From Microbispora hainanensis (GTDB taxonomy: Bacteria > Actinomycetota > Actinomycetes > Streptosporangiales > Streptosporangiaceae), in the NCBI RefSeq assembly GCF_036186745.1, contig NZ_CP108086.1, forward strand, positions 8,184,001 through 8,248,000: a stretch of 64,000 nucleotides of DNA. The letters are read 5' to 3'. The notes below the pieces were generated by a model. That model worked only from the letters and a program-made list of their open reading frames with translations, searched no databases and was not told the DNA's origin. The translations under genes and the position numbers were made by a program. Position 1 is the first letter of the stretch. Each line of letters begins with the position of its first letter. Below are positions 29,468 through 47,208 of this stretch, in pieces.

Positions 29468-30402
29468 TATCTCTCCACCCCTCTGTACACCCTCGTACCG
29501 ATATTTCCTGACAGCGCGGCACCGATGTGGTGCAGCGAGGTGATCACGGCCCGGCCCCCGGTCTCCTCGGCGAAGCGCAGGGCGGCCTCGACCTTGGGTC
29601 CCATGCTGCCTCCGGCGAAGTGACCGGCCGCCTGCAACTCGCGCAGGGCGGCCACGTCGATCTCCCCGATCGGGCGGGCGCGGGGCGTGCCGAAGTCCAC
29701 GGCGGCGTTCGGCACGTCGGTCGCGATCACGAGGTCGGTGGCGCCGACGGCGACCGCGAGCACGGCGGCGGCGAGGTCCTTGTCGATCACGGCCTCGATC
29801 CCGGTCAGCGTGCCGTCCTCCTGCCGCACGACCGGCACTCCCCCGCCTCCGGCGGCGACCACGGTGAATCCGGCGTCGATGAGCGCGACGGCGGCGGAGG
29901 CGTCCAGGATCTCCACGGGACGCGGCGAGGCGACCACGCGGCGCCATCCGCGGTCGAACCTCCGCCAGGCCTGGCCGTGCCCCTCGAAGCGGCGCGCCTC
30001 CTCCTCCCCGAAATACCGCCCGATCGGCTTGACGGGGTCCTGGAACGCCGGGTCGGCCGGGTCCACGAGCGTACGGGTGACGATCGCCGCCACCCGGGCG
30101 TGCCCCAGCTCATGCTGCAGGGCGTTCATGATGAGCGTGCCGATCGTGCCCTGTGTCTGGGCCACGCACCAGTCGAGCGGCACGGGCGGCACGACGTGGG
30201 CGGCGAGCTGGTTCTTCAGCAGGAGGTTGCCGACCTGGGGGCCGTTGCCGTGGGTGAGCACCACCTCGTGCCCGGCCCTGCTGAGCGCCGCCACGTGGGC
30301 CATCGCCTCGCCGATCGCCCGCTCCTGGTCGGCCGGGGACGCGCTCCCGTCGGGAGCCGTCATGGCGTTGCCGCCCAGTGCGATCAGTACGCGTCCGCCC
30401 AC
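29467..30402 (-). CDS. arcC: carbamate kinase
   Basis: 311 residues. IALGGNAM at the N-terminus, [28 protein letters not shown] and [14 protein letters not shown] near the C-terminus match the amino-acid-kinase fold carbamate kinases. It makes ATP from carbamoyl phosphate, giving NH3 and CO2. Coupling to a ring-opening amidohydrolase instead of arginine deiminase genes suggests a place in N-heterocycle breakdown. The GTG start has TAGTTT (complement of 30409-30414) six bases upstream. Confidence 0.9.
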
Positions 30403-30606
30403 ATCCGGAAACTATCCAGCCCCATCCGGGCCTTCATTGGCGAGTCTCGCCCACCCCTGCCGCATCCATGGGCAGATTTCACCAAGCCACAGCGAAGAAG
30501 CCGGGCGGCCTCCCGGGTGAATGGCCGCTCCGCCGCTTGCCGGCTCCCGTCCCAGGCGGCTTCTGCCAGAATGCTCGCCTCTGCCCCCCTTATGTTGGAG
30601 ATCCGC

Positions 30607-31248
30607 ATGGCGATGGCACAGGCGCGTCCCGGGCTCACACATGAACGTGTCAGTATCTTCGCCGACGCGATATTCGCGATCGCGATCACGCTGCTCGCCC
30701 TGGAACTACCGCGCCCGGAGGGCGAGGACTTCCGGCGGCTGGGATCGTTCTTCGGCGACCACGTCGGCTCCTTCATGGCCTTCGCCATCGCCTTTCTCAT
30801 GCTCTGGTTCACGTGGCGGGCCCATCACACGCTGTTCGACCAGATTGAGCGGGTGTCCCAGCTGACTCTCCTGCTGCACATCCCGCTGCTGTTCTTCGTG
30901 GTCTTCCTGCCGTACACGACGTCGCTCTTCGGCGAGACCAACGCCAGCCGGCTGCCGGCCGAGGCCGACGGCAGGGCCCTGGCGACGGGCCTGTTCGCCG
31001 GCAACGAGGCCATCCTGCTGCTCGCCCAGGGCGCGCTGTTCACCCTGGTGCTGGCGCAACGCCTGCACCGGCCGGACGCGGACGTGCAACGCCTGCGCGC
31101 CAACGCCTTCATCTACTGGGCCATCGGGATCTACTGGCTGCTGACCGCCGCGGCGAGCGCGTGGACGGTCGACGCGGTGCCCTTCCTGTGGCTGGCTACC
31201 CCGCTCGTCGCCGCCGGCACGGTCCGGGTGCTCAGGATGAGACGATGA
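30607..31248 (+). CDS. TMEM175-family (DUF1211) ion channel-like protein
   Basis: 213 residues. The N-terminal helix has the TMEM175 signature (RVSIFADAIFAIAITLLALEL), followed by five more membrane helices. Bacterial members form tetrameric K+-selective channels. ATG 30607 is chosen because GGAG lies six bases upstream; ATG 30592 is an alternative. Its end overlaps the end of the convergent Doc gene by 17 bases. Confidence 0.88.
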   Translation: MAMAQARPGLTHERVSIFADAIFAIAITLLALELPRPEGEDFRRLGSFFGDHVGSFMAFAIAFLMLWFTWRAHHTLFDQIERVSQLTLLLHIPLLFFVVFLPYTTSLFGETNASRLPAEADGRALATGLFAGNEAILLLAQGALFTLVLAQRLHRPDADVQRLRANAFIYWAIGIYWLLTAAASAWTVDAVPFLWLATPLVAAGTVRVLRMRR

Positions 31249-31874: not shown

Positions 31875-33050
31875 TCACGCCACGTCCGCGCCGAGGCGGC
31901 GCAGGCGGGTCACCGCCTCGTCGATGACCTCGTCCCGCTTGCAGAAGGCGAACCGCAGGTAGTGGCGCCCCCGTTCGGGATGGTCGTAGAAGACCTGGGT
32001 CGGAATGGCCACCACTCCCGCCAGCTCGGGCAGCCGGCGGGCCAGTTCCAGGCCGTCCTCGAAGCCGAGCGGCCGGATGTCGGTCTGCACGAAGTAGGTG
32101 CCGGCCGGCCGCAGCACGTCGAACCCGGCCTCCGTCAGGCCCGTCATGAGGCGGTCCCGCTTGGCCTGCAGGGCCGCCCGCTGGGCCGCGACCCACTCCA
32201 TCTCCTCGCGGAGGGCGTACGCGACCGCGACCTGCCAGGGGGCGTTCGCGGTGAAGGTGAGGAACTGCTTGACGGTCTGCACGGCGGCGGTGAGCGGCGC
32301 CGGAGCGCACACCCAGCCGGTCTTCCAGCCGGTGACGCTGAAGGTCTTGCCCGCGGAGGAGATCATGACCGTGCGCTCGCGCATGCCGGGCAGCGTGGCG
32401 AGCGGAATGTGCTCGACGCCGTCGAAGGCGAGATGCTCGTAGACCTCGTCGGTCACCGCGATCAGGTCGTGCTCCTGGCAGACCCGCGCGACGCACTCCA
32501 GCTCCTCGCGGGTGAACACGGTGCCGGTCGGATTGTGCGGCGAGTTGACCAGGATGACCCGGGTGCGGGGCGTGATCGCGGCCTCCAGCTCGGCCGGGTC
32601 GAAGGTGAACCTCCCCGCGTCGACACGCAGCGTGACCGACCTGCGTACGGCTCCCGCGAGCGCGACGGCCGCGGCGTACGAGTCGTAGTAGGGCTCGAAG
32701 AGAACCACCTCGTCGCCCGGCTCGCAGAGCGCGAGGATCGCCGCGGAGATGGCCTCGGTGGCGCCGACGGTGACGAGGACCTCCCCGTCGGGGTCGTAGG
32801 CGAGGCCGTACCACTGCTTGCGGTGCTCGGCGACCGCCTGCCTCAGCTCTGGGAGGCCCGGTCCTGGCGGGTACTGGTTGAGACCGCCCCGCACGGCCTC
32901 GATCGCATGCTGCAGCATGCGCTCCGGCCCGTCGGTGTCGGGGAAACCCTGACCCAGGTTGATCGATCCCGTCTCCACGGCCAGCTTCGTCATCGTGGCG
33001 AACACGGTCGTCCCGAACTCCCGCATCCGCCGCACCAGCGGCTCTCTCAC
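31875..33050 (-). CDS. class I PLP aminotransferase (DapC/YbdL-like)
   Basis: 391 residues. INLGQGFPDTDGPE, NQYPPGPGLPELR, VTVGATEAI, NSPHNPTGTVF, DEVYEHLAF and the PLP-lysine segment SSAGKTFSVTGWKTG are all present. Closest to N-succinyldiaminopimelate or methionine/kynurenine-type aminotransferases; the substrate cannot be fixed from sequence. GTG start. It is the last conventional high-GC gene before the FXS locus. Confidence 0.9.
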   Translation of the reverse strand: MREPLVRRMREFGTTVFATMTKLAVETGSINLGQGFPDTDGPERMLQHAIEAVRGGLNQYPPGPGLPELRQAVAEHRKQWYGLAYDPDGEVLVTVGATEAISAAILALCEPGDEVVLFEPYYDSYAAAVALAGAVRRSVTLRVDAGRFTFDPAELEAAITPRTRVILVNSPHNPTGTVFTREELECVARVCQEHDLIAVTDEVYEHLAFDGVEHIPLATLPGMRERTVMISSAGKTFSVTGWKTGWVCAPAPLTAAVQTVKQFLTFTANAPWQVAVAYALREEMEWVAAQRAALQAKRDRLMTGLTEAGFDVLRPAGTYFVQTDIRPLGFEDGLELARRLPELAGVVAIPTQVFYDHPERGRHYLRFAFCKRDEVIDEAVTRLRRLGADVA

Positions 33051-33250
33051 TCCGTTACTCTATCCGGAAGCCAATAAGCGAACAAATGATGCCACCGAGC
33101 CTCAACAGCCAATACCTCCGACACGGGGAACCGCCTGCCGTTCTTCCCATAGTCGTAGGTGAATTAGCTTCTCGGAACATGGCGATCCTGCTACCATCCT
33201 CGTCCATTGCGAGTGCCCGAAGTCCTCAGCTCACGATTGGCACTGGTTGC

Positions 33251-33370
33251 ATGAACGACACTCCCACGCTACATACTTCGGTCGCCGACTACGCCGATAT
33301 AACACTGGAGGAGCTACCCGACAGGCAGGCAATTGAAGCGTCTACTGTTACGTTCAATTCAACCAGTTGA
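33251..33370 (+). CDS. FxsA-type RiPP precursor peptide, C-terminus FNSTS
   Basis: A 39-residue ORF (from ATG 33251) with an acidic leader-like part (SVADYADITLEELPD) and the C-terminal five residues F35-N-S-T-S, the FxSxx-COOH pattern that defines FXS-system precursors. FxsB-type maturases join an aromatic ring to the beta carbon of the third residue of a three-residue motif, here Phe35 to Ser37 (family knowledge). There is no good Shine-Dalgarno at 33251. ATG 33179 in the same frame has TAGCTT (33165-33170) eight bases upstream and would give 63 residues. The leader fits the shorter form better. An FxsB gene follows one gene later. Confidence 0.75.
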   Translation: MNDTPTLHTSVADYADITLEELPDRQAIEASTVTFNSTS

Positions 33371-33554
33371 TTGGTGTGCATCAAACCACCTTTGACGACG
33401 AAGGTTGCAGTGGCCGGCTGCGACCTGGCTACCGCGGCCTCTACATCGTAGCTCCGCAGTTGCCTGAAAGCCTCGTCATGGACGCATCCTACGAGTAACC
33501 TGCCAAGAAGGCGGTGGGACCGCCTTCCGGGAAGAACGTTCGAAGGAGCCGGTC

Positions 33555-35861
33555 TTGCCACGTCGTCGGACCTCCTGGGTTCTGACTACATCAATCATCG
33601 CGGTCGTCCTGCTGCCGACCGCGACCAATGTCGCCTCGAACGCCCTTCCCGATTCCTGGCGATCGAACCTTTGGCTGGCATGGCCCATCTGCATACTGCT
33701 CGCGATTCCCGTACTGGTCATGGAGCTGCGCACACGTCATGGCGCCCCTGCCGAGCATGCACCTCCCCCGGTGACGGTCGCTCCGAAGACCGACACTCAA
33801 ATATGGAATATTCCAGCACCCGTCAAGGAATTCAGCAATCGCAGAGCGGAGTTCCGCAGGATCGGCACCATACTGATGCGAGGAAGCGGTCGGGCGCTTC
33901 TGCTGTGCGGCATGGGAGGTATCGGGAAAACGCAACTCGCTCTCGCTTACGCACACCGCCGGCGCTCGTCCCTCACTCTGGGGTGGCGGGTGTCCGCGGG
34001 CAGCCGAACGTCGGTGGTCTCCTCCCTGGCCGAGTTGGGCCGCCAAATGAACCTGGCTTCCACCACTGCCGAGTCCACAGCCAGGAAAGTCGTCGACCTG
34101 CTGAGCGAGCGAGAGGGATGGCTCCTCATATTCGACGATGCAAAGAGCTGCGAAGATCTCCTGGATCTGATACCCGTCACATCAGGCGGGCAGGTCCTCA
34201 TAACTTCCAGAAACCCACAATTCGATCGTCTCGCGGAAACGCTGCTCCTCGAGGTGTTCCCCCAGGAGGAGGCCGCCCGGTTCTTACGCAACCGTGCCGG
34301 AGACGCCGACCAGGACTCCTCCGCGGAACTGGCGACGAGGCTCGGGGGTCTGCCTCTCGCACTGGAGCAAGCGGGCGCCTACTGCCGTGACTCCGGCATC
34401 GGGCTCCGCGACTACCTGCAGCGGTACGACTCCAGTCGCGCGCGTCTGCTTAGACAGGGCTCGGGCCACAGTCGTGTCAGCGTGGAGGCGACTCTCGATC
34501 TTTCCTTCGACTGGGTGATGCGGCGCAACCCTGCAGCCATGCAGCTCCTTCGCGTTCTCGCGTTTATGGCGCCCGCTGACATTCCTCGAAACCTGCCCAT
34601 GATGAGTCCGTCCGTGCTCCCTCGTGCGCTCGCGCGCGCCTGCGCCGATGTCGTGGCCCTCGATGAGGCCATCGCGACGCTCCTGCAGGCCTCCCTTCTC
34701 ACCTCGGCCACCGCCGAGCATATCCGCGTGCACCAGTTGATCTCAGACGTGCTTCGCGACCGGATCACGGCCGACGGAAATCGCGGACTGCGATGGTTGC
34801 GCGGCTTGCGAGCGGTGTTCACCCCGAGGAGAGACCCGTCCTCGTCCTGGAGCGTCTCACGCTGGCTGAAGGCGGCCCTGACTCTCCTGTGGGCGGGCGT
34901 GCAGGTGAACGAGCGGGACCCGGACGGTTGGAGCCGCGCCGCCACACTGCTTCCCCATGCTGACCGGGTCTGGACCTACCTGGTGAACGGAGAGGTGACA
35001 TTCCGTCAAAAAGAAATGGTTCTTGCCGCCCAGCTGTTCGGCGAGCTTGGCATTCGGCTGTTCCGAAAAGGCGACTACGCGGTGGCCGAAGAGTTGTGCC
35101 GCCGAGCCTGGCGGATCGGCCAAGAGGTGCTTTCAGAAACGGATCCACGCCTGCTGCGCCTGGCGAACTGCCTTGCCCAGGTGACCCACGGCCTTGGAAA
35201 GTTGAGCGAGGCAAAAGACCTTTATGAACAGGCACTCTCTGTTTATCGCCGCGACTATGGGGAAGATCATCCAGACACGATCCAGACGATGAATGATCTG
35301 GGCGGTGTCCTCCTGGAACAGGATGAGCACCTACTCCAGGCGAGACGCATCTACGAGCAAGTCGTTACTACGCGGCTTCGCACACTCGGCCAGCGTAACG
35401 TTCACACTCTCATGTCAATGAACAACCTCGGCAAGGTGTGCCGCTATCTTCACGATCTCCCCACTGCACATGCTCTTGCCACGGAAGTAGTGAGAATCGG
35501 GAGCGAGTTGCTGGGAGAGGAACATCCCGACAATCTTGTCTGGATAAACAATTTGGCGGAGGTCTCGCGCGCTCAGGGAGACTTAGAAAAGGCTCGCGCG
35601 CTCCATGAAAAGGTCCTCACACTGCGACGCAAGGTACTCGGCGAGACACATCCTGCGAGCATCGTCTCCATGAACAACCTCGCCCGGGTCATCCGCCTGC
35701 TCGGGGACGTGCCTTCCGCCCTCCAACTGTACGAAGAGTCCCTGGCACTGGCCCGCCAGGTCTTGGGGGAAGATCACCCGTCCTTTACCGCAGCAGAAAA
35801 AGGGGTGCAGGAGTGCCTGGCGGACCGTCACCTGCTGGACGACGGGAATGACTCCTCATAG
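33555..35861 (+). CDS. membrane-anchored STAND (NB-ARC) NTPase with TPR repeats
   Basis: 768 residues. TTG start with AAGGAG six bases upstream. Two membrane segments (about 7-25 and 37-56) are followed by an NB-ARC-like NTPase: P-loop GMGGIGKT (about 119-126), LLIFDDAKS as Walker B, VLITSRN as sensor, and LGGLPLALEQAGAYC. From about 500 a series of TPR units runs to the end, each with LGEEHPD- or LGETHPA-type joints. It lies between the FxsA-like ORF and FxsB. Such proteins act as ligand-triggered ATPase switches; here it is held at the membrane. Base composition is lower in GC than its neighbours. Confidence 0.85.
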   Translation: MPRRRTSWVLTTSIIAVVLLPTATNVASNALPDSWRSNLWLAWPICILLAIPVLVMELRTRHGAPAEHAPPPVTVAPKTDTQIWNIPAPVKEFSNRRAEFRRIGTILMRGSGRALLLCGMGGIGKTQLALAYAHRRRSSLTLGWRVSAGSRTSVVSSLAELGRQMNLASTTAESTARKVVDLLSEREGWLLIFDDAKSCEDLLDLIPVTSGGQVLITSRNPQFDRLAETLLLEVFPQEEAARFLRNRAGDADQDSSAELATRLGGLPLALEQAGAYCRDSGIGLRDYLQRYDSSRARLLRQGSGHSRVSVEATLDLSFDWVMRRNPAAMQLLRVLAFMAPADIPRNLPMMSPSVLPRALARACADVVALDEAIATLLQASLLTSATAEHIRVHQLISDVLRDRITADGNRGLRWLRGLRAVFTPRRDPSSSWSVSRWLKAALTLLWAGVQVNERDPDGWSRAATLLPHADRVWTYLVNGEVTFRQKEMVLAAQLFGELGIRLFRKGDYAVAEELCRRAWRIGQEVLSETDPRLLRLANCLAQVTHGLGKLSEAKDLYEQALSVYRRDYGEDHPDTIQTMNDLGGVLLEQDEHLLQARRIYEQVVTTRLRTLGQRNVHTLMSMNNLGKVCRYLHDLPTAHALATEVVRIGSELLGEEHPDNLVWINNLAEVSRAQGDLEKARALHEKVLTLRRKVLGETHPASIVSMNNLARVIRLLGDVPSALQLYEESLALARQVLGEDHPSFTAAEKGVQECLADRHLLDDGNDSS

Positions 35862-35978
35862 GGTCGGCCGCGAAGTAGGTCCGCTCCACCAGGGTCCTGG
35901 ATACCTGCGCAACCTGGAGGGCGTCGCAAGGGCGAGTTAAATAATTACCAAACCCGTCGGGCCCACAGAACCGAGGCT

Positions 35979-38195
35979 ATGAACTCAATGGCACTCAAGC
36001 GGCCGCCTCTAGCCACCCTGCCCTTCCGCCAGTTCGTGCTCAAGGTGGCGAGCAGGTGTGATCTGGCCTGCGACCACTGCTATGTGTACGAACACGCCGA
36101 CACCAGCTGGCGGGGACGGCCGGTGGTGATGTCCGACGAGACCGCCGTCCGGGCGGCGGACCGGATCGCAGAGCATGCCGCCGAGCATCGAATCCAGACG
36201 ACGCACGTCGTCTTCCACGGAGGCGAGCCCCTCCTCGCCGGGATCGAGCGGCTCCGGCGTTTCGCACGGACGCTCCGCCGGGCGGTCGAGGGTGTCTGCA
36301 ACCTCGACCTGCGCATCCACACCAACGGCGTGCTCCTGTCACGAGCGTTCTGCGACATGTTCACGGACGAGGGCGTCAAGGTCGGCGTGTCGATCGACGG
36401 CGACCGCGTGGCGAACGACCGCCATCGGCTCTACGCCAACGGCCGCAGCAGCTACGACCAGGTCATCCGGGCGATCACCCTGCTGCGGGACCATTACCCG
36501 CATCTCTATGCCGGGCTGTTGTGCACCATCGACGTCCGCAACGATCCCATCGCGGTATACGAGGCGCTCGTCGCGCTGCGCCCTCCGCGCGTCGACTTCC
36601 TGCTGCCGCACGCAACGTGGGACAACCCCCCACTGCGGCCCGCCGGCCGGGACACCGCCTACGCCGACTGGCTGATCACCGTGCACGACCGGTGGCGCGC
36701 GGACGGCAGGCCGGTCCCGGTCAGGATATTCGAGTCGATCATCCTGACCGCCTCGGGCGGGGACAGCCAGACCGAGTCGCTCGGCCTGCGGCCCTCCGAC
36801 CTCGTCGTCATCGAGACCGACGGTTCCTACGAGCAGGCCGATTCGCTCAAGACCTCCTTCGACGGCGCGCCCGCGACCGGATATGACGTCTTCCGTCACT
36901 CGCTGAACGAGGCCGCGGGGCATCCCGGCTTCGCGGCGCGTCAGGGCGGCCTGGACTCCCTGTCCGAGGAGTGCCGCCGCTGCCCGCTCGTCGCCAGCTG
37001 CGGCGGCGGCCTCTACGCGCACCGCTACCGGACGGGCTCGGGCTTCGCGAACCCCTCGGTTTACTGCGCCGACCTCTTCCGGCTGATCTCCCACCTGGTC
37101 GCCTACGAGCGCCGGCGCCCGGCGACCCCCGTCCACCGGCTGCCGGTCGCCACCGTGGACGCCATGGCGTCGGGAAGCGTCACGTCTGACGACGTCGCCC
37201 TCCTGCGCGCCCCGCAGCTCAGCAGAGCACGGCTGGCGGCGCGCCGCACGGCGACGGTCGTCGCCGACGAGGAGTCCTGGTCCGTCCTCGTGGACGCGGA
37301 GCGGGCGGACCGCGCCGCGGTCGACGACCTGCTGAGCCACCCCTACGTCCGTGCCTGGGCGGCGCGCTGCGCGGCCGTCGATCCCGCCTCGCTCACCACC
37401 GCCGACACGGGTCATCTCGCCGCCGTCGCCGCGGTCGCCGCCGTACGGACCGGTCTGGCCGTGAAGGTGACGGTGCCGGTCGTCCAGGACTTCATTCATC
37501 TGCCCGCCCTCGGCCGCATGCGCGCGGCCGGAGAAGACCGCGCCGATGTCGAAGCGCACGACGGGTCGTTCGCCGTGAGGGTCGGCGGCCGATGGCATTC
37601 CGAGGACAGCGGGCTCTGGGAGCCCGTCCGCCTGGTCGGCGGCGCCGGGATCCGTCTGCTGCTCGACGACGTCGATCCTTATCGCGACTGCTACGGCCTG
37701 CCCGTCGAGGACCGGCTCAGCGCCGAGACCGCCGCCGGATGGGACGAGGTCGTCCGTGCCGCGCTCGACCTCCTGACCGATGATCAGCGGGCCGCCATGC
37801 GCGACGGCCTGCGCGTCGTGACGCCCCTCTCTCCGTCCGCGACGGGCGCGACGAGCCGCGCGGCGTACGGCGCGATCGCCCTGCCGCTGAGCGCCGGCCC
37901 CGAGACGACGGCCCGGCTGCTCGCCGAGCATTTCCACCGGGCCCAGCTCGGGGCGCTGCTCGACCTGCTCGACCTCGCCGGCGGCGACGCGAACCACGAG
38001 CGCCTGCTGTGCGATGCCTACGGGCTCCTTTCTGTCGCCGATCTCCTCGGTGAGAAGGAACTCGAGCGGCTGATGGAGACGATCGGCCAGATCACCGACT
38101 GGGCGCTCCCCGCTGTGGGGCGTCGGTTCGCCAGGCAACTGGCCGACGCAGCCGCCGCTCGCGGCAGCCGACTCACCACGACGCGGCGGGAGTGA
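35979..38195 (+). CDS. fxsB: FxsB-type radical SAM/SPASM cyclophane maturase with C-terminal degenerate HExxH domain
   Basis: 738 residues. N-terminal radical SAM domain with CDLACDHC (Cys27, 31, 34), GGEPLL near residue 87 and SIDGD near 139. A SPASM-type Cys cluster lies at about 331-365 (ECRRC, ASCGGG, VYCADL). This fits FxsB enzymes that build a three-residue cyclophane in FxsA. The C-terminal half resembles the HExxH domain often fused to FxsB, linked to alpha-ketoglutarate-dependent beta-hydroxylation, but the motif reads A649-E-H-F-H, so the first His is missing. ATG 35979 or 35988. A GTG 14 bases after its stop starts the FxsT-like gene. Confidence 0.88.
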   Translation: MNSMALKRPPLATLPFRQFVLKVASRCDLACDHCYVYEHADTSWRGRPVVMSDETAVRAADRIAEHAAEHRIQTTHVVFHGGEPLLAGIERLRRFARTLRRAVEGVCNLDLRIHTNGVLLSRAFCDMFTDEGVKVGVSIDGDRVANDRHRLYANGRSSYDQVIRAITLLRDHYPHLYAGLLCTIDVRNDPIAVYEALVALRPPRVDFLLPHATWDNPPLRPAGRDTAYADWLITVHDRWRADGRPVPVRIFESIILTASGGDSQTESLGLRPSDLVVIETDGSYEQADSLKTSFDGAPATGYDVFRHSLNEAAGHPGFAARQGGLDSLSEECRRCPLVASCGGGLYAHRYRTGSGFANPSVYCADLFRLISHLVAYERRRPATPVHRLPVATVDAMASGSVTSDDVALLRAPQLSRARLAARRTATVVADEESWSVLVDAERADRAAVDDLLSHPYVRAWAARCAAVDPASLTTADTGHLAAVAAVAAVRTGLAVKVTVPVVQDFIHLPALGRMRAAGEDRADVEAHDGSFAVRVGGRWHSEDSGLWEPVRLVGGAGIRLLLDDVDPYRDCYGLPVEDRLSAETAAGWDEVVRAALDLLTDDQRAAMRDGLRVVTPLSPSATGATSRAAYGAIALPLSAGPETTARLLAEHFHRAQLGALLDLLDLAGGDANHERLLCDAYGLLSVADLLGEKELERLMETIGQITDWALPAVGRRFARQLADAAAARGSRLTTTRRE

Positions 38196-38208
38196 AGCAG
38201 GGGAGACA

Positions 38209-41200
38209 GTGAGCCAGTTCAGAAACGGCCACATCGTCACGTTCTACTCCTACAAGGGAGGGACGGGAAGGACGATGGCGCTGGCCAACACGGCCTGGAT
38301 CCTCGCCTCCAACGGCCACCGCGTGCTGGTCGTGGACTGGGACCTGGAGTCTCCCGGCCTGCACAAGTTCTTCCGGCCCTTCCTCGACGGAGACATGATC
38401 AGCGGCACGACCGGCGTGATCGACCTGATCAAGGAGTTCGCCTGGGCGGCGACCCGCCCCGAGCCGCGTCCCGCCGACTGGCACACCCGGTACGCCGACG
38501 TGGGGCGGCACGTCCTGTCGGTCGAGTGGCCCCACTTCCCCGACGGCGGCTCCCTCGACTTCCTGCCCGCCGGACGGCAGAACCGCGACTACTCGTCGCT
38601 GGTGTCCACGTTCGACTGGGACAACTTCTACGAGCGGCTGGGCGGAGGGCAGTTCCTCGATGCCCTGCGGGTGGACATGCGTCGCGGCTACGACTACGTG
38701 CTCATCGACAGCCGCACCGGCCTGAGCGACATCGCCGACATCTGCACGGTCCACTTCCCCGACACCGTGGTGACCTGCTTCACGCTCAGCGACCAGAGCA
38801 TCGAGGGGGCCGCGCGGGTCGCGTCGGAGATCGCCGAACGGTTCCCCGACCGCCGCATCAGGATCCTGCCGGTCCCCATGCGCGTGGACGACGCGGAGAA
38901 GGAGAAGCTCGACGCGGGCCGGGCCTTCGCCCGCAGCCAGTTCGAGGGGTTCCCCAGCGACCTCGGCCAGGACCAGGCCGGCAGCTACTGGGGGGCCGTC
39001 GAGATCCCCTACAAGCCGTTCTACGCGTACGAGGAGACCCTGGCGACCTTCGGTGACGCGCCCGGCTCGCCCGGCTCGCTGCTGGCCGCCTACGAGCGGC
39101 TCACGGGCGTCATCACCGGAGGCCGGGTCTCGTCCCTTCCCCCGCTGGACGAGGAACTGCGGCTGAGTCACCGGGAGCTGTTCGTCCGGCGCCGCCCGTC
39201 GCTGTCGAACGACGTCAGCCTGAGCTACGTCCCCGAGGACCGGTTGTGGGCGGAGTGGATCGCCGCCGTGCTCACCCAGGCCGGCATGCGGGTCCGTACG
39301 CAGGGGGGCGAACGCGAGGAGGACGAGAGCGGGCAGGCGCGGACGCCGGAGGCCGCGGGCCGCACGGTCGCGCTGCTGTCCCCCGCCTACCTGCGCTCAC
39401 GGCAGGCCCGGGAGACCTGGCACGCCGCCGAGGGGCCCGCCACCCTGTCCGCTCACCTCCTTCCCGTCCGCGTGTCGGACGTCCGGGTCCCGCAGACGTA
39501 CGCCGACCCGCCCGCGCTGGACCTGTTCCGGCTGGACGAGCAGCACGCGGCCGCCGCGCTGCTGCGCGCCCTCGACCGCCCGGCGGGCACCGAGGCCGTG
39601 GGGCAGGGAGGGACGCCGCGGTATCCCGGCATCCAGCCCGCCATCCTGAACCTGCCGACCAGGAACGCCGCCTTCACCGGCCGGGGCGAGGTGCTGGAGC
39701 GGCTGCGGGACCAGTTGGTCGGCGGCAGCCAGGCCGTGGTGACCCAGGTGCAGGAGGGCCGCACCCAGGCCCTGTTCGGCCTCGGCGGCGTGGGCAAGAC
39801 ACATCTGGCCATCGAGTACGCCCACCGCTTCATGAGCGACTACGACGTCGTGTGGTGGGTGTCGGCCGAGCAGCCGGAGCTGCTGAACGGAGCGATGGCC
39901 GATCTGGCCGAGCGGCTGGGCATCAGGATCGGCGACAACCTGGCGGAGGCGGCGCTCGCGGCCAAGGACGCCTTACGGCGGGGCGAGCCGTACGCCCGCT
40001 GGCTGCTCATCTTCGACAACGCCAACAGCGCGGACGACGTGCAGACCTACCTGCCCGGCGGCTCCGGCCACGTGCTGATCACCTCGCGCAGCCAGACCTG
40101 GTCGCAGATCGCCAAGCCGCTGGAGATCGACGTCTTCACCCGGGAGGAGAGCCTGGAGCACCTGCGGCGCCGGGTCGCCGATCTCAGCGACGAGGAGGCC
40201 GACCGGGTGGCGGCCGCGCTCGGCGACCTGCCGCTCGCCATCGAACAGGCCGGGGCGTGGCTGCAGGAGACCGGCATGAGCGTGGACGAGTACGTCGACA
40301 AGCTCGCGAAGCAGCCCGTACGCACGCTCGCGCTCGGAGACTCCCCGACGACCTATCCGACGCCCGTCGCCGCCACCTGGAACGTGTCGTTCCAGCGACT
40401 GCGGGAAAAGTCGCCCGCGGCGGTCCGGCTGCTCCAGTTGCTCGCGTTCTTCGCCGCGGAACCGGTGTCGCTGTCCATGCTGTACGGCGACGAGACCGTG
40501 CGCTGCCTGGTCCGGTACGACGACTCGCTGCGTGAGAAAATCATGATCGGGCGGCTGGTGCGCGAGCTGAACAGGTTCGCCCTCGCCAAGGTCGACCAGC
40601 GCAACAACTCGGTGCAGGTGCACCGGCTGGTGCAGGCCGTGCTGCGCGACCAGATGGACGACGACGAGCGCGAGCGCACCGTCCACGAGGTGCACCGCAT
40701 CCTCCTGGGTGCCCGCCCGCGCGAGGGCGACACGGACGACCCCGGCAACTGGCCGCGCTACGACGAGATCTGGCCGCACCTCGCCCCGTCCAACGCCGAG
40801 GAGTGCGACGAGGAGGAGACCCGGCAGCTGCTGATCGACCGCGTGCGCTACCTGTATCGGCGCGGCGAGTTCGACCGGGCGCTGAGCCTCGGCCGCCGCC
40901 TGGAGGAGCTGTGGATCAGGAAGCTCGGCGACTACGACCGGCAGACGCTCTACCTGCGGTTCCACATGGGCAACGTGCTGCGCTCCCAGGGCAGGTACCT
41001 CGAGGCGTGCGATCTCAACCGGGCGATCCTCGAAGACCAGCGCAGGGTCCTGCCCGACCCGCATCCCCACACCCTGCAGACCGCGGGGAGCCTCGCGGCC
41101 GACCTGCGCGCGCTGGGCGAGCTGAGCGAGTCGCTGCGTATGGAGCAGGAGACCTACGCGCGGACCAAGGAGCTGTTCTTCGACGACCACCCGCGCGTCC

Positions 41201-42138
41201 TCGCGGCGGCCAACAATCTGGCCGTCGCCCTGCGGCACGTCGGTGACATCGGCGCCGCGCGCCGGCTCGACCAGGAGACCGCGGACAAGCGCCGCGAGGT
41301 GCTCGGTCCCGCCCACCCCTTCACGCTCCTGTCCGAGACGAACCTCGCTCTGGACATCCGGGAGGCCGGAGAGTACGCGAAGTCGGCCGACCTGCTGCGC
41401 GAGACGCTGAACAGCTACGGCGAGGTGTCCGGCCCCGAGCTCCCCGACACGCTGAACACCGCGCGCAGCCTCGCCGTGTCGCTGCGCGAGACCGGCGCGC
41501 TCGCCGAGGCGCGGCGGCTCACCGAGACGACCTACGAGCGGTGTCTCCAGCGCTTCGGTCCCGAGTCGCCCGACACCGTCGCCTGCAAGCTGAGCCTCGC
41601 CTGCGACCTCGCCGCGTCGGGCGACAGGCGACGGGCGTACGAACTCGCCTCCGAGGTCAGGGCCAGCTACGAAAGCAAGCTGGGCGCGGACAACCCCTAC
41701 ACCCTGATCGCGGCCAACAACATCACGATCTACCTGCGGCACCTGGGGGAGCTCGCCGAGAGCCGGGCGCTGGGCACCCGGACCCTCGCGACGTTGCGGC
41801 GCAAGGTCGGGCCCGACCACCCCTTCTCGCTCGCCTGCGGTGTCAACGTGGCCAACACCCTCGGAGACCTGCAGGACTACCCCGAGGCCGAGAAGCTGCA
41901 GCGGGACACGCTCGACCGGCTGCGCGCGGTGCTCGGCCCCCATCACCCCACCACGCTGATCTGCGAGGCCGACCTGGCCGTCACCCTCCGCGACGTCAGG
42001 CGGACCGACGAGGCGCGGGTGCTGCGCGAGCCGCTGCTCGTCCAGCTCCGCCGGATCCTCGGGGAGGCGCACCCGGTCATCGCGGCGGTGCTGGACTGGC
42101 GCCGCGTCGACCGCGAGCTGGAGCCGCTCCCCTGGTGA
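38209..42138 (+). CDS. FxsT-like protein: MinD-type ATPase, TIR-like domain, NB-ARC, TPR
   Basis: 1309 residues. Domain order: ParA/MinD ATPase with deviant Walker A KGGTGRT (16-22) and DYVLIDSRTGLSD; a TIR-like domain about 330-440 (DVSLSYVPEDRLWAEWIAAVL); an NB-ARC NTPase with P-loop GLGGVGKT (about 524-531), LLIFDNANS and LPLAIEQAGAWL; then TPR repeats from about 870 to 1290 with GPAHPFT- and GPDHPFS-type joints. It matches FxsT, the TPR component of FXS systems, with the TIR-like part perhaps replacing a separate FxsC. GTG start after GGGGAG. A 9-bp hairpin follows the stop. Confidence 0.85.
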   Translation: MSQFRNGHIVTFYSYKGGTGRTMALANTAWILASNGHRVLVVDWDLESPGLHKFFRPFLDGDMISGTTGVIDLIKEFAWAATRPEPRPADWHTRYADVGRHVLSVEWPHFPDGGSLDFLPAGRQNRDYSSLVSTFDWDNFYERLGGGQFLDALRVDMRRGYDYVLIDSRTGLSDIADICTVHFPDTVVTCFTLSDQSIEGAARVASEIAERFPDRRIRILPVPMRVDDAEKEKLDAGRAFARSQFEGFPSDLGQDQAGSYWGAVEIPYKPFYAYEETLATFGDAPGSPGSLLAAYERLTGVITGGRVSSLPPLDEELRLSHRELFVRRRPSLSNDVSLSYVPEDRLWAEWIAAVLTQAGMRVRTQGGEREEDESGQARTPEAAGRTVALLSPAYLRSRQARETWHAAEGPATLSAHLLPVRVSDVRVPQTYADPPALDLFRLDEQHAAAALLRALDRPAGTEAVGQGGTPRYPGIQPAILNLPTRNAAFTGRGEVLERLRDQLVGGSQAVVTQVQEGRTQALFGLGGVGKTHLAIEYAHRFMSDYDVVWWVSAEQPELLNGAMADLAERLGIRIGDNLAEAALAAKDALRRGEPYARWLLIFDNANSADDVQTYLPGGSGHVLITSRSQTWSQIAKPLEIDVFTREESLEHLRRRVADLSDEEADRVAAALGDLPLAIEQAGAWLQETGMSVDEYVDKLAKQPVRTLALGDSPTTYPTPVAATWNVSFQRLREKSPAAVRLLQLLAFFAAEPVSLSMLYGDETVRCLVRYDDSLREKIMIGRLVRELNRFALAKVDQRNNSVQVHRLVQAVLRDQMDDDERERTVHEVHRILLGARPREGDTDDPGNWPRYDEIWPHLAPSNAEECDEEETRQLLIDRVRYLYRRGEFDRALSLGRRLEELWIRKLGDYDRQTLYLRFHMGNVLRSQGRYLEACDLNRAILEDQRRVLPDPHPHTLQTAGSLAADLRALGELSESLRMEQETYARTKELFFDDHPRVLAAANNLAVALRHVGDIGAARRLDQETADKRREVLGPAHPFTLLSETNLALDIREAGEYAKSADLLRETLNSYGEVSGPELPDTLNTARSLAVSLRETGALAEARRLTETTYERCLQRFGPESPDTVACKLSLACDLAASGDRRRAYELASEVRASYESKLGADNPYTLIAANNITIYLRHLGELAESRALGTRTLATLRRKVGPDHPFSLACGVNVANTLGDLQDYPEAEKLQRDTLDRLRAVLGPHHPTTLICEADLAVTLRDVRRTDEARVLREPLLVQLRRILGEAHPVIAAVLDWRRVDRELEPLPW

Positions 42139-43041: not shown

Positions 43042-43224
43042 CGCCGGGCCCTCCGTGTCGATCGTCGAAGGATCTCAGGCCCAGGATCCTCCGAACCGGT
43101 GTGACGCGAAAGGGCCCGGCGGCCTCGGAACGGCAACACCTTTCCCGGACGGCCCCTGGAGCGCTCCCTTTTGGCGGGTTATTTTCGATAAAGGCACGTG
43201 CCGCCCAGCGAAGGACGAGGATTT

Positions 43225-44910
43225 ATGGCCTTTCCCGCGAGCTACGTGGTGCGTGCGGTATTCGCGGGCCTGGCGGTGGCCGCACTGGTGACCGGATATA
43301 TCGGCCTTCAGACCTATGCGAAAACGCTGAATCTGCCGTCGGGTCCCCTCGATCTCCTCTACTGGGACCTGCAACTGTTCGTATTCGACTCCGCGCCGCT
43401 CGACGAGCCGAAACCGCTGCCGGGCCTGCTGGAGTTCGCGCGTTTCGCCGCGCCCGGCGTGACGATCTACACCCTCGTCGACGGAGCCCGCCTGCTGTTC
43501 GCCGCCGAACTGCGGCGGTTGCGGGCGCGCAGGTCGAAGGAGCACGTGGTCGTGTGCGGCACGGGATCGCCGGCGCTGGCCCTGGTGGAACGGCTGCGCG
43601 CGACGAGCACGCGGATCGTGATGATCGGGTCGGCTCCGGTGGCCGCCACCGGCGATCGCAGGGTGCTCTACGTCAGGGGCGACGCGCGCAGCCCCGCCAC
43701 CCTCCGCGCCGCCGGGATCCAGCGGGCCTCCGTCCTGTACGCCTGCGAGCCGGACAGCTCGGCCAACACGGCGATCGCCCTGGCGGCGCACGGCGTGGCC
43801 AGAGCCGACGGCAGGCGGCCCCTGTCGGCGTACGCGCTGATCTCCGATCCCGACCTGTGCGCCGCGCTGCGGGCCCGCCGGCTGAGCCTTCCCGGCAGGC
43901 CCCGGCTGCGTCTCGACTTCTTCAACCTGGACGAGCTCGCCGCCCGGGTGCTCCTGGACCGGCACCCGATAGTGAACGAGCAGCCTGTCGTCGTCATCGG
44001 GCTCGACGCCTTCGGCCGCAGCCTGCTGGTCGAGATGGCGCGCAGGCGGCGGCTGATCCCCGCGCCGTACCCGCTGCCCGTGACGGTCATCGACGCCGAC
44101 GCCACCAAGACCGTCGAGGCCGTGTGCCGCAGGTTCGAGTTCGTGGCCGAGACGTGCGCGCTGACCACGCACAACGCGCCGCCCGGCGACCTGCCGCTGG
44201 GAGAGCTGCTGCCGTCCGAGCCGCCGCAGCGGGTGTTCGTGTGCCATCGCGACCAGGACCTCGCGCTCAAGACCGCGCTCACCTCGCTGCGTCTGTGGAA
44301 CTGCGGGCCGGGATCGCTCGTGGTACGGGTCGAGGAGGCCGGCACCTTCAGCCGGGCCTTCGATGACGTCCATCTGCTGGAGGGGCTGTCCGGCGCCCTG
44401 CGCGTCTTCGCGGTCAACGAGGAGGCCGGCGACCCACGACTCATCGGGGAGGACCTGGTGGAGACGCTCGCCCGGGCGATCCACGAGAGCTACATCGTGG
44501 AGAACACCGCGCGGCGCCACGTGCGGGCGACCAACCCCTCGCTGGTGCCGTGGGAGAGCCTGCCGTCCCGTCTGCGGGCGGCGAACCGGCGGCAGGCCGA
44601 GGACATCGGCCGCAAGCTGACGAGCATCGGCTGCGCCCTCGCTCCCCGCGTGGAGCCCGAGCTGCACTTCGCCTTCAAGGACTACGAGATCGAGCAGCTT
44701 GCGATGATGGAGCACGAACGGTGGCTGCGGGACCTGGTCGCCGACGGATGGACCCGCGGCCCGGTCCGCGACGACGAGAGCAGGAGGCACCCCGACCTGG
44801 ACAGCTGGGACAACATCTCGGACATGGCGAGAGAGAAGGCCCGCGACACCGTGCGGAACCTGCCGCGCATCCTGGCCACCGCGGGTTTCCAGATCGTACG
44901 GGTCGGCTGA
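43225..44910 (+). CDS. membrane protein with two RCK/TrkA-N-like domains and a C-terminal RyR domain
   Basis: 561 residues from ATG 43225 (AAGGA and GAGG upstream). Hydrophobic segments lie at about 8-30 and 74-96 with YWDLQLFVF between; no K+ filter motif is seen. Two NAD-binding-like (TrkA-N/RCK) domains follow (EHVVVCGTGSPALAL about 106, QPVVVIGLDAFGRSLL about 255). A RyR domain ends the protein (EIEQLAMMEHERWLRDLVADG, DSWDNISDMAREKARDTVRNLP). Such domain sets occur in predicted nucleotide-ligand sensing and channel systems. Four bases downstream starts the SLOG gene. Confidence 0.85.
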   Translation: MAFPASYVVRAVFAGLAVAALVTGYIGLQTYAKTLNLPSGPLDLLYWDLQLFVFDSAPLDEPKPLPGLLEFARFAAPGVTIYTLVDGARLLFAAELRRLRARRSKEHVVVCGTGSPALALVERLRATSTRIVMIGSAPVAATGDRRVLYVRGDARSPATLRAAGIQRASVLYACEPDSSANTAIALAAHGVARADGRRPLSAYALISDPDLCAALRARRLSLPGRPRLRLDFFNLDELAARVLLDRHPIVNEQPVVVIGLDAFGRSLLVEMARRRRLIPAPYPLPVTVIDADATKTVEAVCRRFEFVAETCALTTHNAPPGDLPLGELLPSEPPQRVFVCHRDQDLALKTALTSLRLWNCGPGSLVVRVEEAGTFSRAFDDVHLLEGLSGALRVFAVNEEAGDPRLIGEDLVETLARAIHESYIVENTARRHVRATNPSLVPWESLPSRLRAANRRQAEDIGRKLTSIGCALAPRVEPELHFAFKDYEIEQLAMMEHERWLRDLVADGWTRGPVRDDESRRHPDLDSWDNISDMAREKARDTVRNLPRILATAGFQIVRVG

Positions 44911-44914
44911 GCGA

Positions 44915-45400
44915 GTGAGCGGGGTGCCCACGATCGCGTTCACCGGCCACCGGGGCCTGCCCAGGGACACGGCCGTCCGGATCCGCCGCGCCCTTCGGGC
45001 CGTTCTCGCCGGCCGGGGCCGGCCGCTCGTGGGCCTGTCCTGCCTGGCGGAGGGGGCCGACCAGCTCTTCGCCCGCGAGGTGCTGCGTGCCGGCGGCGAG
45101 CTCGACGTGATCGTGCCCTCCGCCGGATATCGGGAGAGCCTGCCCCGCGCGGCCCGGGCGGGATACGACGAGCTGCTCCCGCTCGCGCGGCACGTGCACA
45201 CGATGCCGTTCGAACGGCCGGAACCGGTGGCGTACATGGCCGCCTCGGTCTTCATGCTGGAGCGGGCGGACGAGTTGCTCGCCGTCTGGGACGGGCTGCC
45301 GGCGCGCGGGTACGGCGGGACTGCCGACGTCGTCGCGCACGCCCGCGAGCAGGAGATGCGGGTGCTGGTGCTCTGGCCGCCCGGCTCGCGGAGGGACTGA
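44915..45400 (+). CDS. SLOG-superfamily protein
   Basis: 161 residues with a Rossmann-like SLOG core: AFTGHRGLPRD near the N-terminus, VGLSCLAEGADQLFA near residue 40, and a C-terminal VWDGLPARGYGGTADVVAHAR. SLOG domains are predicted to bind or process nucleotide-derived ligands and often occur beside RyR, TIR or channel genes. The GTG is four bases after the RCK-RyR stop, so the two are almost certainly one operon. Confidence 0.85.
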   Translation: MSGVPTIAFTGHRGLPRDTAVRIRRALRAVLAGRGRPLVGLSCLAEGADQLFAREVLRAGGELDVIVPSAGYRESLPRAARAGYDELLPLARHVHTMPFERPEPVAYMAASVFMLERADELLAVWDGLPARGYGGTADVVAHAREQEMRVLVLWPPGSRRD

Positions 45401-45431
45401 CACGAAGACGGGCACGAAGGGGACGGTCGGG

Positions 45432-46487
45432 GTGAAGGCGGCGGCGGACAGGATCCGGCGGGTCGACGCGCTGCGCGGGTTCGCGGTGTGCGGGATCATG
45501 CTGGTCAACGCCTGGCAGCAGAGGGTGCGGCACGGGCCGACCTCGATCGACTGGGTGATGACGAACCTGTTCCAGAGCCGCTTCTACCCGATGTTCGCGT
45601 TCCTGTTCGGGCTGTCCTTCGCGCTGTTCCTGCGCTCGGCGGGGCTGCGCACGCGGCGCCCGCGCGTCGTCATGCTGCGGCGCCTGGCCGTGCTCGCGGC
45701 CCTGGGCGCGGCGCACATGCTGATCGACCCCGGCGAGGTGCTGCTGCCGTACGCGCTGCTGGGGGTGGTCCTGTTGCTTCCGGCGAGCCTGCTGCCCCGG
45801 GGGGCCGTGCTGCTGGTGGGCTGCGGCGTCCTGGTCGCCTCCGTGCTCGACCCCCATCCGTACGTGCTGATCACCGCGCTGTTCCTGCTCGGCCTGGCCG
45901 CCGCGCCCGGCGGGGAGGCGAGGAGGGGCGCCGGGCGCCTCGGCGGGGCCGACGGCCTGGGCAGCGGGCCGCTCCTCGGCGCCGTGTGCGGTACGGCGGC
46001 CCTGCTCGCGGCCGGGCTGACCTGGTGGTGGAACCACGCGCCGCCCGGCGGCGGGGTCTACCAGGCGGCGGCGCTGTGCGGCGCGGCGGCGTACGCCACG
46101 GCGTTCCTGCTGGTCGCCCGTCGTACGGCGGTGTTCGAGGCGCTGGGCAGGATGACGCTGACCAACTACGTGACGGGCACGACGGTGATCGTGGTGGCGA
46201 TGCCGCTTCTGGAGGCCGACCACACGGGTGCCGCCGTCGTGGTGCTCACCGTCGTCACCGTGGCCGTGCAGGCGGTCTTCTGCAGGTGGTGGCTCGCCCG
46301 GCACCGGTACGGCCCGCTGGAACGGGTGTGGCGCACGCTCACGTGGTGGGGCACCTCCCTGGACGACTCCGGAGGCACCTGGTGGGGCACGGCGGCGACC
46401 GGGCAGACTGTGATCCGTGACCCGCGTAGCGCTGTGCCAGATTCCCGTCGACCACGACCCGGAGACCAACCTCTCGACCGTGCGTGA
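45432..46487 (+). CDS. DUF418-type polytopic membrane protein
   Basis: 351 residues. N-terminal RVDALRGFAVCGIMLVN and later MTLTNYVTGTTVI and RYGPLERVWRTLTWW are the DUF418 hallmarks (acyltransferase-3-like membrane fold). Function unknown. GTG start with AAGGGGA eight bases upstream. The tail after LTWWG is not conserved-looking and overlaps the next gene by 71 bases. Confidence 0.85.
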   Translation: MKAAADRIRRVDALRGFAVCGIMLVNAWQQRVRHGPTSIDWVMTNLFQSRFYPMFAFLFGLSFALFLRSAGLRTRRPRVVMLRRLAVLAALGAAHMLIDPGEVLLPYALLGVVLLLPASLLPRGAVLLVGCGVLVASVLDPHPYVLITALFLLGLAAAPGGEARRGAGRLGGADGLGSGPLLGAVCGTAALLAAGLTWWWNHAPPGGGVYQAAALCGAAAYATAFLLVARRTAVFEALGRMTLTNYVTGTTVIVVAMPLLEADHTGAAVVVLTVVTVAVQAVFCRWWLARHRYGPLERVWRTLTWWGTSLDDSGGTWWGTAATGQTVIRDPRSAVPDSRRPRPGDQPLDRA

Positions 46488-47208
46488 CGCCCTCGCACGG
46501 GCGCGGGGGGCGGACCTCGCCGTGTTCCCCGAGGCGACGCTCGCCCGGTTCGGCCCGGGGATCCTCGAGACCGCCCAGCCCCTGGACGGCCCGTTCGTCA
46601 CCGGCCTGGCCGAGGCCGCGCGCGAGCACGGCACGGCCGTCATCGCCGGCGTCTTCGAGACCGCCCCGGACGGCAGGGTGTGGAACACGGCCGTCGCCCT
46701 GCGGGAGGACGGCTCGCTCGCCGCGGCCTACCGGAAGATCCACCTGTTCGACTCCTTCGGCGCGAAGGAGTCGAAGCTGGTCGCGCCGGGGGACGTCCCG
46801 GAGGTCGTGGAGCTGGCCGGGCTCAGGATCGGCCTGATCACCTGTTATGACGTCCGCTTCCCCGAGCTGGCCCGCGCGCTGGTGGACCGGGGCGCGGACA
46901 CGTTCGCCGTGATCGCCGCCTGGGGCTCGGGCCCGCTGAAGGAGGACCACTGGACGACCCTGGTGAGGGCCAGGGCCATCGAGAACACAACCTGGACCAT
47001 CGCGGTCGGTCAAGCCCCCAATCCCGCCATACCGGACGGGTTCGGTGTGGGCCGCAGCATGCTCGTCGATCCGATGGGCGTCGCCCGGCATGACCTGGGC
47101 ACGGGCCCCGGCGTGCTGATCGCGGAGATCGACACGGCCTGGACCGAGACCGCGCGCGCCACCCTCCCCTCGCTCGAACACCGCCGGCTCGGAGTCGGCA
47201 GATCGTAA
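46417..47208 (+). CDS. nitrilase-superfamily carbon-nitrogen hydrolase
   Basis: 263 residues. The catalytic triad is Glu39 in VFPEA, Lys107 in YRKIHLFD and Cys143 in ITCYDVRFPE. The set resembles omega-amidase or deaminated-glutathione amidase (NIT1/Nit2-like). Cytoplasmic amide hydrolysis is likely; the substrate is unknown. The GTG start lies inside the end of the DUF418 gene. Confidence 0.9.
   Translation: MTRVALCQIPVDHDPETNLSTVRDALARARGADLAVFPEATLARFGPGILETAQPLDGPFVTGLAEAAREHGTAVIAGVFETAPDGRVWNTAVALREDGSLAAAYRKIHLFDSFGAKESKLVAPGDVPEVVELAGLRIGLITCYDVRFPELARALVDRGADTFAVIAAWGSGPLKEDHWTTLVRARAIENTTWTIAVGQAPNPAIPDGFGVGRSMLVDPMGVARHDLGTGPGVLIAEIDTAWTETARATLPSLEHRRLGVGRS

What the first reader, a model, noticed from the sequence alone, without database searches (positions are those of the whole stretch)
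33179..42138. Candidate FXS cyclophane RiPP locus: FNSTS precursor, membrane STAND-TPR, FxsB, FxsT-like
A short ORF ends in FNSTS (FxSxx-COOH). It is followed by a radical SAM/SPASM protein with CDLACDHC and a long TPR protein, the set named FXSXX-COOH system. FxsB enzymes are known to build three-residue cyclophanes; here the ring would join Phe35 and Ser37 of the precursor. The extra membrane STAND protein between precursor and maturase is not part of the basic set I know.
Basis: partly seen in the sequence, partly recalled or inferred. Interest (0 to 1): 0.85.

Follow-up and report, generated by a model that had tools for sequence, protein, structure and literature searches.

The report
FxSxx cyclophane peptide locus, rearranged
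This looks like a real member of a known family of bacterial gene clusters that make a small ring-bridged peptide, but here it lacks two genes that its nearest complete relatives have, carries an extra membrane sensor gene in its middle, and sits at a site where related species hold different subsets of these genes or none.

Summary
Window 33251-33370 encodes a 39-residue FxsA-type precursor ending FNSTS; 35979-38195 is an FxsB maturase (TIGR04269, 576 bits, cut-off 370); 38209-42138 is a MinD/TIR-like/NB-ARC/TPR FxsT (NF040586, 1047 bits, cut-off 300). The precursor gets no HMM hit, but the model also misses relatives' precursors; homology and position confirm it. The membrane STAND-TPR protein is an FxsT relative (388 bits) and separable: orthologues hold the same site without fxsB in three congeners. 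fxsC (35 of 41 fused-type loci) and an AAC(3)-like gene (19 of 41) are absent. Fifteen congeneric genomes show eight states of this site; five genomes have none of the genes. FxsB's HExxH half is degenerate; across 37 precursor-enzyme pairs an intact HExxH goes with a V-x-V-A motif beside the ring (22 of 25), a degenerate one never (0 of 12), though only about four independent changes underlie this. Most likely product: one Phe35-Ser37 cyclophane without hydroxylation, perhaps a signal for STAND receptors in a conflict-type system. Chemistry and role are inferred. New variant of a known kind.

The parts
33251..33370 (+). fxsA, 39-residue FxSxx-COOH precursor; leader motif ADITLEELP, core FNSTS (Phe35, Ser37)
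   Evidence: Its last residue, Ser, is unique among 37 paired precursors (the other 36 have I/L/V/F there, one followed by an extra Gly). No clear Shine-Dalgarno before the ATG (by eye)
33507..33527 (+). 9-bp hairpin between fxsA and the STAND gene, possible attenuator or weak terminator
   Evidence: whole 205-nt stretch z = -2.65, 2 of 200 shuffles fold as well; coordinates counted by hand; no U-run follows
33555..35861 (+). membrane STAND-TPR protein, 768 aa, TTG start: two hydrophobic stretches, NB-ARC/STAND NTPase, DUF7779, TPR repeats; FxsT relative
   Evidence: NF040586 388.5 bits (cut-off 300); PF00931, PF25000, PF13374, PF13424; hydropathy; 80-85% identical orthologues in G001, G003, G011 aligned from residue 1; window-branch N/S ratio 0.14
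35979..38195 (+). fxsB (FxsBH form): radical SAM/SPASM maturase, residues 16-373, with a C-terminal HExxH-type domain whose motif is degenerate (EHFHR)
   Evidence: TIGR04269 576 bits; NF040587 146 bits, below its cut-off of 225; seven cysteines conserved in 41 of 41 fused-type FxsB; motif column
38209..42138 (+). fxsT, 1309 aa: MinD/ParA-like (KGGTGR), TIR-like, NB-ARC, DUF7779, TPR
   Evidence: NF040586 1047.5 bits, NF047398 152.7 bits; PF13676, PF00931, PF25000
38196..38208 (.). place where G010 and G012 carry an AAC(3)-like gene and fxsC; absent here, a GGGGAG stretch before fxsT kept

Best explanation
A FxSxx-COOH (triceptide-type) RiPP locus of the fused FxsBH class. Shown: fxsA, fxsB and fxsT are homologous to the family parts and have open frames; the HExxH half of FxsB is degenerate; the AAC(3)-like gene and fxsC of the nearest complete relatives are missing; a membrane STAND-TPR gene lies between fxsA and fxsB. 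Inferred: the radical SAM half of FxsB joins the Phe35 ring carbon to the Ser37 beta carbon of FxsA (loss of 2 H), with no beta-hydroxylation or HExxH-dependent cleavage. Inferred more weakly: the ring-bearing C-terminal peptide is a ligand or trigger read by STAND NTPases, cytosolic FxsT and perhaps the membrane STAND protein, in a conflict or self-recognition system. The gain and loss at one site among congeners fits such a role.
For: Family models; precursor conservation and adjacency; 138 of 139 near-invariant FxsB columns kept; constraint on the window branch in the radical SAM half (7 non-synonymous, 14 synonymous codons, ratio 0.18), FxsT (14/38, 0.13) and STAND (32/82, 0.14), with the HExxH half relaxed (18/15, 0.49); pairing of HExxH state with the V-x-V-A motif; eight locus states in 15 genomes; the MinD-like stretch of FxsT matches the phage-defence candidate PDC-M28B (80.6 bits over residues 8-55). 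Literature: MscB joins C4(Phe) to Cb(Ser) (PMC11002830, passages; that its family IPR026335 is FxsB is recalled). Kaur et al. 2020 describe standalone actinobacterial FxSxx-type systems with an AP-ATPase bearing an additional MinD/ParA-like domain that they call inactive, and propose a peptide toxin or signal (PMC7159879, section 24 read).
Against: The precursor lies 2.6 kb from fxsB, ends in Ser where the other 36 of 36 paired precursors have I/L/V/F, and has no clear ribosome site, so it may be eroding. fxsC, present in 35 of 41 fused-type loci, is absent here, and its C-terminal model finds nothing in the window's genome (it hits 4 of 4 congeners). PADLOC models give nothing for STAND and only the MinD-like stretch for FxsT. 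The branch counts are small and cannot date the rearrangement. Nothing shows that the peptide binds FxsT.
Confidence: 0.7

Rival explanations
1. The locus is decaying: fxsA is no longer expressed or modified, fxsB and fxsT linger, and STAND is the gene kept by selection, as in G003 where only an fxsA remnant and STAND are left.
For: fxsA remnant upstream of STAND in G003 (seen by eye); absence of fxsC and AAC(3); Ile-to-Ser type change at the C-terminus; pieces of fxsC in G004 and G009 and of STAND in G006.
Against: FxsB radical SAM half and FxsT show about the same constraint on the window branch as on that of G012, which has the complete operon (0.18 vs 0.21; 0.13 vs 0.11); fxsB and fxsT frames are open; fxsA ORF, leader motif and FNS intact. 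The relaxed HExxH half is shared with relatives that have complete operons, so it is not a sign of decay here.
Confidence: 0.2
2. The membrane STAND protein is a working third component, a membrane receptor for the FxsA peptide beside FxsT, replacing fxsC.
For: It is an FxsT relative by NF040586; it lies inside the gene run; an fxsA remnant precedes it in G003; in a second genus (G052) its orthologue lies about 0.75 kb from an FxsT relic on the other strand.
Against: It persists under constraint without fxsA or fxsB at the site in G001 and G011 (dN/dS 0.156 between them); in G001 and G003 the best FxsB match in the whole genome is only E 1.2e-14 and 1.6e-7. No FxsB (16-17.5 kb searched) and no FxSxx ORF (1200 nt upstream searched) beside the four orthologues in G052, G198, G275, G072. 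Its synonymous distance to G003 (0.49) is 2.5 times that of the neighbouring aminotransferase (0.20), so it moves independently of the flank.
Confidence: 0.25
3. The short ORF is a chance FxSxx match and fxsB has another substrate.
For: No HMM hit; five F-x-S-x-x-stop ORFs in the window; not adjacent to fxsB.
Against: Leader and core homology to the G010 precursor; it lies beside the aminotransferase gene as do the precursors of G010, G012 and G013; in the 3.5 kb upstream of fxsB the only other candidate is FPSTG inside STAND.
Confidence: 0.05

Closest known systems
FxSxx-COOH systems (fxsA, fxsB, fxsC, fxsT; TIGR04268, TIGR04269, NF040588 with TIGR04276, NF040586)
   Same: FxsA-type precursor, FxsB over cut-off, FxsT over cut-off, same order A-B-T
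   Different: no fxsC, membrane STAND between A and B, last precursor residue Ser
Standalone actinobacterial FxSxx peptide-processing systems of Kaur et al. 2020 (PMC7159879, section 24 read)
   Same: SPASM radical SAM gene plus AP-ATPase/TPR protein with MinD/ParA-like domain
   Different: they describe a zincin-like metallopeptidase at the core; here the fused HExxH domain is degenerate
Fused radical SAM/alphaKG-HExxH enzymes (ChlBH; as cited in PMC12636437, passages seen; original paper not read)
   Same: same domain order
   Different: HExxH motif lost, so only the ring-forming half is expected to work
Triceptides made by MscB (PMC11002830, passages seen)
   Same: expected Phe C4 to Ser C-beta three-residue ring
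   Different: product not demonstrated here

Membership tests
FxsB maturase (TIGR04269) | profile score over curated cut-off | tested here: met
   576 vs 370 bits
FxsB maturase (TIGR04269) | CxxxCxxC and SPASM-region cysteines | tested here: met
   C27, C31, C34, C182, C332, C335, C341 in 41 of 41 fused-type rows
FxSxx-COOH precursor (TIGR04268) | C-terminal F-x-S-x-x and homologous leader | tested here: met
   FNSTS, leader homologous to G010
FxSxx-COOH precursor (TIGR04268) | directly beside fxsB | tested here: not met
   2609 nt away; 35 of 41 fused-type loci have it within 60 nt
FxSxx-COOH precursor (TIGR04268) | score over the model's cut-off (28 bits) | tested here: not met
   no hit; the model also misses 4 of 5 close relatives' precursors and scores the fifth 13.9 bits, so this says little
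FxsT (NF040586) | profile score over curated cut-off | tested here: met
   1047.5 vs 300 bits; the STAND protein 388.5 bits
FxsABCT operon | fxsC present | tested here: not met
   0 hits of TIGR04276 in own genome; same search hits 4 of 4 congeners
alphaKG-HExxH beta-hydroxylase fusion (active form) | HExxH motif | tested here: not met
   EHFHR at the motif column
Triceptide | three-residue aromatic-to-C-beta cyclophane | not testable with these tools
   needs mass spectrometry and NMR
VMAP ternary conflict system | vWA and MoxR partner genes | not tested
   only six further window proteins were scanned; none matched vWA or MoxR, the rest of the window was not scanned

The most novel reading that the evidence does not exclude
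One chromosomal site in Microbispora exchanges receptor modules of a peptide-triggered conflict system: the FxsA cyclophane peptide is the ligand, and a cytosolic MinD-TIR-STAND (FxsT) and a membrane STAND are alternative or paired readers, with FxsC dispensable. In the same family the HExxH half of FxsB works on the V-x-V-A segment next to the ring, and both were lost together in several lineages, including this one.
Probability: 0.2. Interest if true: 0.7.

Novelty: new variant of a known kind. Interest (0 to 1): 0.38.

Why it matters
The biological role of FxSxx systems is, as far as I know, open. This locus gives a ring-only natural case (hydroxylase half dead) for testing FxsB chemistry, a set of congeners with the system complete, partial or absent for testing its role, and a sequence prediction of where the HExxH domain acts (the V-x-V-A segment).

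Tried and rejected
HMM proof of the precursor: no hit, shown to say little by the control. TIR catalysis: the usual Glu region is not conserved in 38 FxsT rows (where the catalytic Glu lies is recalled), so no NADase claim is made. PADLOC: viperin models on the radical SAM part of FxsB (34.7 and 23.9 bits), PDC-M28B on the MinD-like part of FxsT (80.6 and 41.6 bits), nothing on STAND or on the FxsC of G010. AAC(3) in trans: one PF02522 gene elsewhere in the genome, context not examined. Independent-pairs test of the HExxH/V-x-V-A pairing: four pairs on all branches, two on starred branches, median p 0.5, so not significant (quick tree only). The pairing was noticed in the loci and then counted on mostly the same loci; only L165 and L166 were new fused-type pairs, and both fit. 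Dropped before that count: four fused-type loci without a found precursor (L048, L098, L103, L135), and all loci with a separate HExxH gene or no HExxH match. The fxsA remnant of G003 was judged by eye; FxsA did not hit it by tblastn at E 0.05 (L031). The stretches between the flanks in the five genomes without fxs genes, and those before fxsC pieces in G004 and G009, were not read for fxsA remnants. Paper searches for FxSxx names and cyclophane terms listed one paper that I recognised as treating these systems (PMC7159879); two others holding the string fxsxx (PMC12734244, PMC8618054, by title on fungi) were not opened. Most subscription papers are not held, so absence from print is not claimed.
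Full report
What is there. The window lies at 8184001-8248000 of an 8.8-Mb single-contig genome. The genus is Microbispora by inference: G003, in the same genus group, has a 387015-base contig like that of NZ_VIRL01000004.1 of M. bryophytorum, with the same alignment to the window. Along the + strand: an aminotransferase on the minus strand (31875-33050, PF00155), fxsA (33251-33370), a membrane STAND-TPR gene (33555-35861), fxsB (35979-38195), fxsT (38209-42138), then minus-strand genes, the first an alpha/beta hydrolase.

Precursor. The 39-mer MNDTPTLHTSVADYADITLEELPDRQAIEASTVTFNSTS has no model hit, but the model also fails on the precursors of relatives: 4 of 5 without hit, one at 13.9 bits against a cut-off of 28. 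The table of FxsB loci has 82 rows (two loci entered twice, both with a separate HExxH gene); 41 are of the fused FxsBH type, 36 have a separate HExxH gene, 5 gave no HExxH match. Of the 41, 35 have an FxSxx ORF ending within 60 nt of the fxsB start, L034 adds one by eye (extra C-terminal Gly), four gave none with my pattern, and in the window fxsA is 2609 nt away. The distance is due to the STAND gene.

Maturase. FxsB scores 576 bits (cut-off 370) with TIGR04269. Seven cysteines that never vary in 41 rows and 138 of 139 near-invariant columns are kept; the exception (residue 504) lies in the C-terminal half. That half is an HExxH-type domain, described in print as an alphaKG-dependent beta-hydroxylase when fused to a radical SAM enzyme (PMC12636437, passages), while Kaur et al. 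describe a zincin-like peptidase in these systems (PMC7159879, section 24). Here the motif HEFQH of relatives reads EHFHR. On the window branch the ratio of non-synonymous to synonymous change is 0.18 in the radical SAM half and 0.49 in this half; the G012 branch gives 0.21 and 0.70, so this is a property of the clade. The counts are small (7 to 18 codons each).

Enzyme-substrate pairing. In 37 fused-type loci with a precursor, the residues before Phe were read. Intact HExxH: 22 of 25 carry V-x-V-A-x next to F (exceptions SVSAF, PAAKF, AAVNF). Degenerate HExxH: 0 of 12 carry it. Fisher p = 2.5e-7 ignores kinship. On a quick tree of the radical SAM half the HExxH state changes at least four times (two if only starred branches count). 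In 200 random pairings over starred branches the motif never went the other way, but in part it did not differ, and so few events cannot reach significance. The reading is that the HExxH domain acts on, or recognises, V-x-V-A; this is a hypothesis found and counted on largely the same loci.

FxsT and STAND. FxsT has a MinD-like KGGTGR domain, a TIR-like domain without a conserved catalytic Glu region, NB-ARC and TPR. The STAND protein has the NB-ARC/TPR part plus two N-terminal hydrophobic stretches. In a search of 297 genomes of the family, 16 have a match at E up to 1e-60; three besides the window are 80-85% identical, four more (56, 47, 42, 37%) align from the hydrophobic N-terminus, the other eight only from about residue 73-86. 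None of the loci of these four (L081-L084) has an FxsB match; one (G052) has an FxsT relic about 0.75 kb away on the other strand.

One site, eight states. Both flanks were found in 15 of 15 genus genomes. Between them (precursors): A-STAND-B-T in the window; A-B-AAC(3)-C-T in G010 and, over two contigs, G012; A-B in G013; FxsC pieces plus FxsT in G004 and G009; an fxsA remnant plus STAND in G003; STAND in G001 and G011; STAND pieces in G006; none of these genes in G002, G005, G007, G008 and G014. Several of these genomes have FxsB loci elsewhere. The FxsC C-terminal model finds nothing in the window's genome (0 of 1) and hits 4 of 4 congeners tried. The window's genome has one FxsB over cut-off. 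STAND's synonymous distance to G003 (0.49) is well above that of the flanking aminotransferase (0.20), which suggests exchange between lineages.

How it most likely works. FxsB joins Phe35 to Ser37 of FxsA; without an active HExxH half nothing else is done to the core by FxsB. The C-terminal ring peptide then acts on STAND NTPases. The first step follows from the family (MscB joins C4 of Phe to C-beta of Ser, PMC11002830, passages; that MscB is an FxsB is recalled). The second is an inference from gene association and patchy presence, in line with the proposal of Kaur et al. that the peptide is a toxin or signal. Whether the membrane STAND takes part is open: it lasts without fxsB at the site in three congeners, two of which have no good FxsB match in the genome at all (G001 and G003), which speaks for an independent role.

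Spread. In a phylum-wide draw, 11 of 396 genomes (the window's own among them) match this FxsB at E up to 1e-90, against many in the window's family.

Verdict. A genuine, rearranged member of the FxSxx-COOH family: a new variant of a known kind. The main new points are the eight-state site, the ring-only maturase, and the HExxH/V-x-V-A pairing.

Noticed in passing
L107 3178-7696 (G004), L108 3002-7312 (G009): Full-length fxsT downstream of fxsC pieces with no fxsB at this site; both genomes carry another FxsB locus elsewhere.
   Followed up: partly
L034 9619-10623 and 18 other fused-type loci: An AAC(3)-like (PF02522) gene sits in 19 of 41 fused-type fxs loci, in most of those I looked at between fxsB and fxsC; role unknown, possibly acylation of the peptide.
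   Followed up: partly
36 table rows among L050, L051, L102, L104 and L133-L172: A second FxsB type: about 370-440 aa with a separate HExxH gene; in 32 of 36 rows an FxsT-like gene lies on the opposite strand, 0 of 36 have fxsC in the stretch held, and 4 of 36 show an FxSxx ORF within 450 nt upstream, two of them short and doubtful. Two loci are entered twice.
   Followed up: partly
L167 (G597), ending 154 nt before the fxsB start: A precursor with two copies of a GNFNSFI core separated by a spacer.
   Followed up: no
L088 (G073): Two FxsA precursors in tandem, one ending NVSAFQSSI about 400 nt upstream and one ending VAVAAFNSSI next to fxsB.
   Followed up: no
window 29527-31248: ORF with a TMEM175-type potassium channel domain (PF06736) near the site.
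   Followed up: no
window 43075-45255 and 45252-46688: Two minus-strand ORFs downstream without a Pfam match at E 0.001 or an NCBIfam match at E 1e-5; the first is absent or in short pieces in several relatives at this site.
   Followed up: no
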